A DNA stretch of 41,286 nucleotides from Sedimenticola sp. (GTDB lineage: Bacteria > Pseudomonadota > Gammaproteobacteria > Chromatiales > Chromatiaceae). The stretch is taken from positions 1 through 41,286 of the forward strand of contig JALVEB010000038.1 in assembly GCA_027008705.1 (NCBI GenBank), given 5' to 3'. The first letter of the stretch is position 1, and each line of letters begins with the position of its first letter. Below, in pieces: positions 11,426-31,262 of the stretch. A program made the translations under genes and the position numbers. The notes below the pieces were generated by a model. The model was not told the origin of the DNA. It saw only the letters and a program-made list of their open reading frames with translations, and ran no database searches.

Positions 11426-11501
11426 GGGTCGTTAGCTCAGTCGGTAGAGCAGTGGATTTTTAATCCATTGGTCATAGGTTCGAATCCTATACGACCCACC
11501 A
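11426..11501 (+). tRNA. tRNA-Lys (anticodon TTT)
   Basis: A 76-base cloverleaf can be read: acceptor GGGTCGT pairs with ACGACCC; the D-arm contains AGCTCAGTCGGTAGAGC; the anticodon stem-loop TGGATTTTTAATCCA has anticodon TTT; the T-arm TAGGTTCGAATCCTA follows. The discriminator A and CCA are encoded. It lies 44 bases after glmS. The 124-residue ORF across it (11405-11779) is a shadow. Confidence 0.97.
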
Positions 11502-11599: not shown

Positions 11600-12397
11600 T
11601 CAGGCCACGCTGTCGATGTCGGCGATCAACTCGTCTTCCAGCCACTGATGAAGAAAGCCGGCCGCGCGCGCGGGAATATGGGCTTCATCGATCCACTCCA
11701 CCAGTCCAGCGCAGACGCTGGAAAAATCCACGCCTTCACGCATCTGGCCCAGGGCCCAGGCCTCGTCAACCGGCAATGACCGGTAGCGGGTTCGTTGGTC
11801 AGCCGAGCGCCAGATCGCCCAGGTTTCCACTTCGGGAAGCGCTTGGGGCGGGATGGGATCGCTTTCGGCTTCGATCGCGCGCCACAGCGCCACCGTGTTC
11901 CAGTGGTGGTGGCGCAGCGCTTGCAGGCTGGGTGCGAAGCGCAGGCGCAGCCCGGCCCACCGCTCGGGCGGGATCCGGCGCAGCGTTTCGCGCTCCAGCG
12001 GGCGGGCATCGGGGGCGTCGAAGGCGCCGCGCAGCGCCCATTCGAAATCCGCCATCTCGGCGAGCAACGGGGTGTCCCGCCAGGGCGGGCGTTCGGCGAG
12101 GAAATGGGCGAGCTGGTCGCCAAACCAGCGGATCGAACGGTAGCTGGACGGATGAGCCTCGAGATAGGCGGCGCCGAGTGCCGCGAAGCCTTCATCGCCG
12201 AGCAGGGTATGAACCGCCGGGTAGGCGTCGCTCAAGGCTTCGATCAGGCGCAGGCGGTAGGCGTCGCTGTAGATACCCAGCCGGGTCTCGATGGGAAAGC
12301 GCGGGGTGCCCACGATCAGTTCGCGCACCTGTTCGTCGCCATTGGTCAGGTGGCGTTGCAGGGCCTCCTGGATGTCTCGCAGGGAGCGTTCAGCCAT
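11600..12397 (-). CDS. BufC/HvfC family protein (DUF2063), bufferin maturation partner
   Basis: The 265-residue protein begins RDIQEALQRHLTNGDEQVRELI and contains IYSDAYRLRLIEALSDAYPAVHTLLGDEGFAALGAAYLEAHPS, the hallmark of the DUF2063 N-terminal helical domain. In bufferin clusters this protein is the partner that helps the MNIO enzyme recognise or modify its precursor peptide. Although DUF2063 has been labelled a putative DNA-binding domain, its steady pairing with DUF692 argues for a maturation role. Its start overlaps the bufB stop by 8 bases, indicating translational coupling. It is the last gene of the operon. Confidence 0.9.
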   Translation of the reverse strand: MAERSLRDIQEALQRHLTNGDEQVRELIVGTPRFPIETRLGIYSDAYRLRLIEALSDAYPAVHTLLGDEGFAALGAAYLEAHPSSYRSIRWFGDQLAHFLAERPPWRDTPLLAEMADFEWALRGAFDAPDARPLERETLRRIPPERWAGLRLRFAPSLQALRHHHWNTVALWRAIEAESDPIPPQALPEVETWAIWRSADQRTRYRSLPVDEAWALGQMREGVDFSSVCAGLVEWIDEAHIPARAAGFLHQWLEDELIADIDSVA

Positions 12398-13232
12398 TGG
12401 CGGCCTCGGGGTGGATGCGATCCCCGGCGATTCGACGGGCCTGCTCGAGCTCGGCCAGCAGGTCGGCCAGCGGCGGGATGTTGTCGTCGCGTTCGATCAT
12501 CGTCGAGACATTGCCGTAGCGTTCCACGGCTTGTTCGTAGAGACTCCATACCGATGGGATGATCCCGGCATCGTGGGTGTCGATGGCGTAATCGCCGAAA
12601 TCACTGTGTCCGGCGAGATGGAACTGTTGCACCCGTTCGCCGGCAATCCCTTCGAGATAGGCGCGAGGGTCGAAGTCGTGGTTCAGCGCGCTGACATGGA
12701 TGTTGTTGATGTCGAGCAGGATCAGGCAATCGGCGCGCTCGCTGATGGCGTTGAGAAATTCCCATTCGGTGAGTTGCGAATCGGCGTAGCTGATATAGCT
12801 GGAGACGTTCTCCAGCAGGATGCGGCGGCCGAGGTAGTCTTGCACCCGCATCACGCGTTCGACGACATGGGCGATGGCTTCCTCGGTATAGGGGAGTGGC
12901 AGCAGGTCATGCAGGTTGAGGCCGTTGATGCCGGTCCAGCACAGGTGATCGGAGATCCAGCGGGGTTCGATCTCGTCGGCGAGCGCCTTGAGCTGCTTCA
13001 GGTAGTCCTGATCGAGCGGGTCGGTCGAGCCGATCGACAGGGAGACCCCGTGCATCACCAGCGGATAGCGTTCGGCGATGCGCGCGAGAAAGTAGCGCGG
13101 CTTGCCGCCGGGCACCAGATAGTTTTCGCTGAGGATCTCGAACCAATCGATGGCCGGATCGGTATCGAGAATTTCGTGGTAGTGCTCCTTGCGCAGGCCA
13201 AGGCCGTAGCCGAGCGAGGGATATCGGGACAA
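12390..13232 (-). CDS. BufB/HvfB family MNIO enzyme (DUF692), bufferin-modifying
   Basis: This is a 280-residue TIM-barrel protein of the multinuclear non-haem iron oxidase (MNIO) family. Characterised members (MbnB, TglH, ChrH, BufB) oxidise cysteines of peptide substrates to thiooxazole, oxazolone or related groups. Likely iron ligands are visible in VMHGVSLSIGSTDPLD, ISDHLCW, ILLENVSSYI, LLDINNIHVSA, FHLAGHSD and the IERDDNIP C-terminal strand. The N-terminal LGYGLGLRKEHYHEIL is also family-typical. It lies 63 bases downstream of the cysteine-rich precursor bufA and overlaps bufC. The long plus-strand ORF opposite it (12291-13637) is a shadow. Confidence 0.93.
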   Translation of the reverse strand: MSRYPSLGYGLGLRKEHYHEILDTDPAIDWFEILSENYLVPGGKPRYFLARIAERYPLVMHGVSLSIGSTDPLDQDYLKQLKALADEIEPRWISDHLCWTGINGLNLHDLLPLPYTEEAIAHVVERVMRVQDYLGRRILLENVSSYISYADSQLTEWEFLNAISERADCLILLDINNIHVSALNHDFDPRAYLEGIAGERVQQFHLAGHSDFGDYAIDTHDAGIIPSVWSLYEQAVERYGNVSTMIERDDNIPPLADLLAELEQARRIAGDRIHPEAANG

Positions 13233-13295
13233 ATCAGTGGTATCCGGGAGAGCTTTGGAGCAAAACCGGCGGGCATGGTACCCGCCGGAGGTGGG

Positions 13296-13580
13296 TCAGC
13301 TCTTGATTTCGCCGCCCTTGTCGATGCATTCGGATGCGCTCATCGGCAGCCAGCCCAGGCCTTTGCACTTGTTCTGACCCTTGCACTTGTTGCTGGCGGT
13401 GGCGCAGGCGGTGGTGCCCTTGCACGAGTTCACGCCGTAGCAGTGGACCTTGGCCGAGCCGGCCTTGGCGCTGCTTTCCGACATGCCCGACATGCCGGGC
13501 ATGCTGTCACAGCCGGTGAGCAGGAAGGCGGCGGCCGCGCCGGCGAGTGCGACACCACTGGTTTTCTTTACACTATTCAT
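13296..13580 (-). CDS. BufA2-like bufferin precursor (copper-binding RiPP) with lipobox
   Basis: The 94-residue precursor has a Lys-containing hydrophobic N-terminal signal. Unusually for this family as I know it, the signal ends in a lipobox LLTGC (Cys24), followed by Asp25 and a Met/Ser-rich stretch (SMPGMSGMSES). The mature core carries the BufA2 pattern VHCYGVNSCKG, ATASNKCKGQNKCKGLGW and a last Cys85, six core cysteines in all (47, 53, 59, 66, 72, 85). BufB-type enzymes turn such cysteines into heterocycles, and bufferins buffer periplasmic copper. A strong AAGGAG ribosome site precedes the start. What metal this variant binds, and whether it is lipidated, is inference. Confidence 0.87.
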   Translation of the reverse strand: MNSVKKTSGVALAGAAAAFLLTGCDSMPGMSGMSESSAKAGSAKVHCYGVNSCKGTTACATASNKCKGQNKCKGLGWLPMSASECIDKGGEIKS

Positions 13581-13744
13581 TCAGATGACTCCTTAAGAGT
13601 GGTTTGTGTTTTGTTCTTGGGCCGCATCCTACAATGAGGGTGGCGTACAGGCCCCTCCAGCCGTCAGGCGAGGCCTGGCGGCATTTTGATAGACCGGCGC
13701 GCAAGCGGTTTTCTTTCCGTTCATGGCTCGGTCGGCGACGAGTA
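13581..13744. other. Upstream region of the bufferin operon
   Basis: On the minus strand the leader of bufA contains CTTAAGGAGTCATCTGA before the ATG, which is a strong ribosome site. I could not identify a clear sigma70 pair. An ECF-type promoter, as reported for bufferin operons in Caulobacter, cannot be excluded by eye. No coding frame in this stretch looks real. Together with the palindromic repeat at 13745-13908 it fills the 388-base gap before the mgtE 3' end. Confidence 0.4.
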
Positions 13745-13908
13745 TATACTCGTCGCTCATGAATTTTCGGATTTTCGAGAGCGTTCCTCGTGCCCGTGGG
13801 CTAGGCGCGGAAACGAGTCATAGCCCATTCTATGGCGAGTTTCCGCAACAACGCCCACGGGTGCGAGGGGCGGTCGCAGTGGCCGAAAATTCATGGGCGA
13901 CGAGTATA
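13745..13908 (+). repeat. MITE/REP-like 164-bp palindromic repeat, copy 1
   Basis: The ends read TATACTCGTCGCTCATGAAT and ATTCATGGGCGACGAGTATA. The two arms stay complementary, with mismatches, right to a centre near CATAGCCCATTCTATG. Internal landmarks shared with the other copies are GTTCCTCG, CCGTGGGC and GGAAACGAGTCAT on the left, and GAGTTTCCGCAAC, GCCCACGGGTG and CAGTGGCCGAAAATTCATGGG on the right. Just outside its left end lies GCGACGAG, giving a second small palindrome GACGAGTATATACTCGTC, perhaps the scar of an abutting copy. It has no gene of its own; short ORFs in it are by-products. Confidence 0.9.
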
Positions 13909-15330: not shown

Positions 15331-15351
15331 GGTTTTTCCATCGAGAATGAC

Positions 15352-15429
15352 ATACTTGTCGCCCATGAACTCTCGTTTATCAAGGCGGTTCCTCCGCGGA
15401 GGCCGAAAAATTCATAGGCGACGAGTATA
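15352..15429. repeat. Short copy of the palindromic repeat, copy 2
   Basis: ATACTTGTCGCCCATGAACT at the left and AAAAATTCATAGGCGACGAG at the right match the tips of the 164-bp repeat. The centre is reduced to GGCGGTTCCTCCGCGGAGGCC, giving about 78 bases in all. It therefore looks like an internally deleted copy, still able to fold into a hairpin. It lies between ptsI and mgtE, just 22 bases upstream of the mgtE start. Confidence 0.8.
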
Positions 15430-15483
15430 AATTGATTTTATCAGGACGGAGGCGGGGAAGGAACCGGCGCGGGCGCGCCTGCC

Positions 15484-23402: not shown

Positions 23403-23560
23403 TATACTCGTCGCCCATGGTTTTCCGAGGCCGTTCCTCGCGCCGGTGGGCCAGGCATGGAAACGAGTCATCGCCTTTTCAGACATGGTGAGTTTCCGCA
23501 ATGATGCCCATGGGTGTGAGGGACGGTCGCAGTAGCCGAAAATCATGGGCGACGAGTATA
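23403..23560 (+). repeat. MITE/REP-like palindromic repeat, copy 4
   Basis: A 158-bp copy in the same orientation as copy 1: left tip TATACTCGTCGCCCATGG, right tip CATGGGCGACGAGTATA. Internal marks GTTCCTCG, GGAAACGAGTCAT, GAGTTTCCGCAATG and CAGTAGCCGAAAATCATGGG are retained. Both tips end in TATA, in keeping with a TA or TATA target duplication. It lies between the defence-like cassette and the LPS operon. Confidence 0.88.
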
Positions 23561-31098: not shown

Positions 31099-31262
31099 TA
31101 TACTCGGCGTCCATGAATTTTCGGCCACTGCGACCGTCCCTCGCACCCGTGGGCGTCGTTGCGGAAACTCGCCATGGAATGGGCTATGACTCGTTTCCGC
31201 GCCTGGCCCACGGGCGCGAGGAACGGTCTCGAAAAACCGAAAATTCATGGGCGACGAGTATA
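31099..31262 (-). repeat. MITE/REP-like 164-bp palindromic repeat, copy 5 (inverted)
   Basis: The tips are TATACTCGGCGTCCATGAAT and ATTCATGGGCGACGAGTATA. Its reverse complement aligns along its whole length with copy 1 (GTTCCTCG, CCGTGGGCCAGGCGCGGAAACGAG, GAGTTTCCGCAACGACGCCC), so it is inserted in the opposite orientation. It separates the divergent SRPBCC gene and the small gene at 31413. Short ORFs in it (31096-31389, 31159-31392) are by-products. Confidence 0.9.

What the first reader, a model, noticed from the sequence alone, without database searches (positions are those of the whole stretch)
13296..13580. Bufferin precursor with a lipobox and Met-rich spacer
The BufA2-like precursor ends its signal with LLTGC (Cys24) followed by Asp25. 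That fits a lipoprotein anchored in the inner membrane, not a freely secreted peptide. A Met-rich stretch (SMPGMSGMSES) separates the lipid site from the six-cysteine bufferin core. A membrane-tethered, MNIO-modified copper buffer would be a distinct form of bufferin. Sequence shows the lipobox and core; MNIO modification follows from the adjacent DUF692/DUF2063 genes; tethering and metal are inference.
Basis: partly seen in the sequence, partly recalled or inferred. Interest (0 to 1): 0.72.

Follow-up and report, generated by a model that had tools for sequence, protein, structure and literature searches.

The report
Predicted lipid-anchored copper-binding peptide (bufferin)
A small bacterial protein of a known copper-buffering family carries a convincing signal for attachment to a membrane by a lipid; this form of the family has already been predicted in print, so this is a well-supported new example, not a new kind.

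Summary
The minus-strand ORF 13580-13296 (94 aa) passes NCBIfam BufA2 (88.1 bits, cut-off 60), precedes bufB and bufC genes, and has a lipobox (LLTGC, Cys24) before a six-Cys core. The lipobox is not chance: of 217 non-fusion BufA2 precursors collected here, 30 have a lipobox, and none of the other 187 has any Cys upstream of the core apart from one mis-started row. Both congeners keep LL(T/A)GCDSMPGMSG. 'Inner membrane' is weaker: Asp at +2 occurs only in this genus, the rule is unreliable outside enterobacteria, and this genome may have a LolF-type system. The Met-rich linker is not a family trait (third Met unique to the window). Novelty fails: PMC12452194 (2025) already predicts lipoprotein signals in about 16% of Buf2 bufferins and suggests anchoring; PMC12636315 showed triacylation of a related MNIO product, NedA. 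What I add: lipobox state changes at least 7 times on the BufB tree; 12 of 16 close tandem bufA2 loci combine one lipobox and one plain precursor (one call doubtful; not significant after correction for descent); a terminator-like hairpin between bufA2 and bufB in all three congeners. Lipidation, modification, copper and location remain untested.

The parts
13296..13580 (-). bufA2: bufferin precursor, 94 aa
   Evidence: NCBIfam NF050166 88.1 bits over cut-off 60; only BufA2 in this genome
13512..13580 (-). signal peptide, residues 1-23 (predicted SPII type)
   Evidence: Lys in n-region, uncharged h-region, lipobox
13509..13520 (-). lipobox L21-T22-G23-C24 (Cys24 = predicted lipid site)
   Evidence: regex rule; conserved in both congeners; pattern hit 13506-13520
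13506..13508 (-). Asp25 (+2 residue of the mature protein)
   Evidence: D only in this genus; A, S, T, Q, N, G, M, V, Y elsewhere
13443..13508 (-). linker, residues 25-46, with M27, M30, M33
   Evidence: pLDDT under 50 for residues 29-39 in a low-confidence model; MPGMSG in congeners, M33 only here
13299..13442 (-). six-Cys bufferin core, residues 47-94 (C47, C53, C59, C66, C72, C85)
   Evidence: all six Cys invariant in 47 aligned homologues
13266..13288 (-). terminator-like hairpin between bufA2 and bufB, possible attenuator
   Evidence: scan; a stem-loop also present at this place in both congeners with different sequence
12390..13232 (-). bufB: MNIO (DUF692) bufferin maturase, TTG start as listed
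   Evidence: NF050167 385.5 bits over cut-off 310; PF05114 376.8 bits
11600..12397 (-). bufC: DUF2063 partner protein
   Evidence: PF09836 72.2 bits over 27.2; NF050145 HvfC only 38.7, below its cut-off 142

Best explanation
A three-gene bufferin (BufA2/Buf2) operon whose only precursor is a prolipoprotein. BufB with BufC oxidise core Cys residues in the cytoplasm (5-thiooxazoles by analogy); the precursor is then exported by Sec, Lgt adds diacylglycerol to Cys24, LspA cuts before it, Lnt may N-acylate it, and the mature peptide stays on the periplasmic face of a membrane on a flexible linker of about 22 residues, binding excess Cu(I). Shown: the genes, lipobox, conservation in the genus, operon order, Lnt and a Lol transporter in the genome. 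Inferred: modification, lipidation, copper, membrane and its side.
For: BufA2 and BufB pass curated cut-offs and DUF2063 is adjacent. Lipobox in all three congeners. Upstream Cys occurs only in lipoboxes: 30 against none of 187, one mis-started row aside. Lnt and a LolC/E-type protein in this genome. Precedent: about 16% of Buf2 predicted as lipoproteins (PMC12452194); NedA of the related EGKCG family made as a triacylated, -12 Da product with its MNIO in E. coli (PMC12636315); MNIO-DUF2063 products generally bind Cu and carry 5-thiooxazole in characterised cases (PMC13097082).
Against: No SignalP/LipoP run and no experiment. No copper genes recognised next to the operon in the stretch examined. 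BufC is below the HvfC equivalog cut-off. Which core Cys of a BufA2 are modified was not established here.
Confidence: 0.82

Rival explanations
1. [quoted passage not shown]
For: Most lipobox BufA2 elsewhere have +2 residues such as A, S, T, Q, N, which in E. coli go to the outer membrane. The Asp+2 rule is weak in P. aeruginosa (PMC6469965). Only one strong LolC/E hit, perhaps a LolF-type system whose sorting rule I did not find.
Against: Asp+2 is kept in all three congeners and is the classical E. coli retention residue.
Confidence: 0.35
2. An ordinary soluble periplasmic bufferin: signal peptidase I cuts the signal and Cys24 is incidental.
For: Most BufA2 precursors have plain signals (187 of 217).
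Against: A Cys does not occur upstream of the core outside a lipobox context; conserved in the genus; Leu at -3 is unfavourable for SPI.
Confidence: 0.06
3. A lipidated buffer of another metal or stress, not copper.
For: MerC-Buf2 fusions link some members to mercury (PMC12452194; six MerC-like fusions seen here). No copper gene recognised in the operon.
Against: [quoted passage not shown]
Confidence: 0.15
4. The Met-rich linker is a functional Cu(I) relay between the lipid site and the core.
For: M27, M30, M33 spaced by three; MPGMSG kept in both congeners.
Against: M33 only in the window; lipobox linkers elsewhere have mostly 0-1 Met, and plain precursors show a similar spread.
Confidence: 0.1

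Closest known systems
Buf2 / BufA2 bufferins (NF050166; PMC12452194), lipoprotein-type subset
   Same: Six-Cys core, bufA-bufB-bufC order, predicted lipoprotein signal; the subset is already reported at about 16%
   Different: Asp+2 and the MPGMSG linker are particular to this genus in my set; no DoxX gene in this operon
NedA, a lipidated oxazolin/captophorin (DAG-RiPP; PMC12636315)
   Same: MNIO plus DUF2063-type partner, Sec/SPII signal, predicted Cu-binding product; lipidation proven in E. coli
   Different: NedA carries EGKCG repeats, not the BufA2 core; no lipidated BufA2 has been shown experimentally in the papers I could read
EGKCG captophorin locus of the same genome (L271)
   Same: Precursor, MNIO, DUF2063 protein in a row
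   Different: EGKCG repeats and a DoxX-like gene; it is a separate, second cluster

Membership tests
BufA2 (Buf2) bufferin | Score above the curated NF050166 cut-off | tested here: met
   88.1 against 60 bits
BufA2 (Buf2) bufferin | Six conserved core Cys | tested here: met
   C47, 53, 59, 66, 72, 85 invariant in 47 rows
BufA2 (Buf2) bufferin | bufA-bufB-bufC gene order with MNIO and DUF2063 partner | tested here: met
BufA2 (Buf2) bufferin | MNIO-installed thiooxazoles on core Cys | not testable with these tools
   needs mass spectrometry or UV near 305 nm
BufA2 (Buf2) bufferin | Copper binding / protection | not testable with these tools
   needs experiment
Bacterial lipoprotein (DAG-RiPP) | Lipobox with Cys at 15-35, charged n-region, uncharged h-region | tested here: met
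   PROSITE-type rule; not run through SignalP
Bacterial lipoprotein (DAG-RiPP) | Lipid on Cys24 | not testable with these tools
   needs mass spectrometry
Inner-membrane-retained lipoprotein | Lol-avoidance signal valid in this organism | tested here: inconclusive
   Asp+2 present; a strict LxGCD search gave only one other plausible D+2 lipoprotein (L260); single strong LolC/E hit

The most novel reading that the evidence does not exclude
Bufferin operons recurrently deploy the same metallophore core in two compartments: tandem bufA2 genes giving one membrane-tethered and one soluble form matured by a single BufBC, with some lineages, such as this genus, keeping only the tethered form and pinning it to the inner membrane by Asp+2.
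Probability: 0.35. Interest if true: 0.5.

Novelty: new member of a known kind. Interest (0 to 1): 0.33.

Why it matters
If lipidated as predicted, it adds a BufA2 case to the lipidated MNIO products, so far demonstrated experimentally only for other families in the papers read. The tandem lipobox/plain pairs would let one maturase be tested on a tethered and a soluble substrate in the same operon, and ask why a copper buffer is fixed to a membrane.

Tried and rejected
First lipobox regex gave 36 hits; six are MerC-like Buf2 fusions whose first membrane helix matches by chance and were removed. No solved structure matches BufA2. The AlphaFold model is weak (mean pLDDT 59.9, pTM 0.36), so no fold search was made. 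A sigma-70-type promoter match lies over 320 bases upstream inside a repeat and was not credited. The link between tandem genes and lipobox is strong by raw count (Fisher p 5e-8) but not after correction for descent (sign test median p 0.125). Copper operators were not tested.

Full report
What is there. The finding lies on the minus strand: the ORF 13580-13296 encodes 94 aa, MNSVKKTSGVALAGAAAAFLLTGCDSMPGMSGMSESSAKAGSAKVHCYGVNSCKG.... It passes the NCBIfam BufA2 model (88.1 bits, cut-off 60) and is the only BufA2 in its genome. Downstream in the same direction are bufB (12390-13232; NF050167 385.5 bits, cut-off 310) and a DUF2063 gene (11600-12397; PF09836 72.2 bits; below the HvfC equivalog cut-off). 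No DoxX gene follows: the next feature is a plus-strand tRNA-Lys at 11426-11501 and an apparent glmS. On the other side lies an apparent mgtE. Both names rest on reading the translations, not on a family search.

Is the lipobox real? I collected BufA2 precursors from genome searches and locus searches. After removal of six MerC-like Buf2 fusions, 217 distinct proteins remain; 30 have a lipobox by a PROSITE-type rule, with Cys at 21-28. Of the 187 others none has a Cys before the core, save one row (L123) whose start was called too far upstream. A seventh Cys therefore occurs only where a lipobox would put it. The two congeners (L007/L032 and L008/L031, 'Sedimenticola' MAGs by record title) read LLLAGCDSMPGMSG and LLLTGCDSMPGMSG. 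One of the 30, L235, is doubtful.

Which membrane? Asp at +2 is the E. coli retention residue, but here it is found only in this genus; the other lipobox precursors have A (14), S, T, Q, N, G, M, V or Y. The rule is weak outside enterobacteria: 3 of 17 P. aeruginosa inner-membrane lipoproteins have it (PMC6469965). The genome has Lnt and one strong LolC/E-type hit, compatible with a LolF-type transporter, though the assembly is in 244 contigs. I regard inner-membrane location as somewhat more likely than not, but open.

The Met-rich linker. M27 and M30 are shared by the congeners, M33 is not. Across the set, Met counts of 0/1/2/3 in the 20 residues before the core are found in 103/52/28/4 plain and 10/13/4/3 lipobox precursors. 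I see no case for a conserved Met-rich function. A weak AlphaFold model gives pLDDT under 50 for residues 23-27 and 29-39, consistent with a flexible linker but no more.

Distribution. On a BufB tree of 183 loci the lipobox state needs 11 changes, at least 7 forced by well-supported branches. All lipobox loci found are in the window's class or a named gammaproteobacterium (Amphritea); a clade of 79 rows, mainly Alphaproteobacteria, has none. The window and its two congeners form a supported clade (97).

Tandem genes. Among 16 loci with close tandem bufA2 genes, 12 combine a lipobox and a plain precursor (one with the doubtful L235; in another, L190, no bufB was seen because the contig ends) and 4 are plain only. 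In most the lipobox gene comes first; the printed order for L148 is an artefact of stop-to-stop coordinates. Five of the 12 are one genus. The association with lipobox is strong by raw count but not significant after correction for descent. The 2025 landscape paper mentions tandem precursors and, separately, lipoprotein signals, but the passages I read do not pair them.

Possible stoichiometry control. A GC-rich hairpin followed by T's (13288-13266) separates bufA2 from bufB. Both congeners have a stem-loop at the same place with different sequence, CAGCCC...GGGCTGTTTTCTT in L032. This may limit enzyme relative to precursor; inference.

What is known. PMC12452194 states that about 16% of Buf2 bufferins have predicted lipoprotein signals and might be membrane-anchored. 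PMC12636315 takes this up, lists bufferins among RiPP-lipoprotein hybrids and shows triacylation with a -12 Da core change for NedA, an EGKCG-type product. PMC13097082 groups MNIO-DUF2063 products as thiooxazole captophorins that generally bind copper. The finding is thus a good new member of a published prediction. No paper I read proves lipidation of a BufA2 protein.

Noticed in passing
window 13734-13908, about 15345-15432, 23403-23560, 31250-31262: A MITE-like intergenic repeat with inverted ends; the 13-mer GGCGACGAGTATA occurs 141 times in this genome against 0 for the reversed control, often in inverted pairs about 163 bases apart. None at the bufA2 loci of the congeners.
   Followed up: partly
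L271:50-2559 (G000 contig C51): Second MNIO cluster in the same genome: EGKCG-repeat precursor, MNIO, DUF2063 protein and a DoxX-like protein. Two captophorin-type clusters in one genome.
   Followed up: partly
L011, L015, L128, L148, L149, L150, L151, L190, L215, L224, L233, L235: Tandem bufA2 genes with one lipobox and one plain signal, mostly under a single bufBC.
   Followed up: partly
L018, L221, L223, L226, L230, L243: Long fusions with a MerC-like multi-helix N-terminal part and a C-terminal BufA2 core; a known type (PMC12452194).
   Followed up: no
L224:3973-4437: Lipobox BufA2 with a His-Gly repeat linker (KGHGHGHGHSHG) before the core, a possible extra metal site.
   Followed up: no
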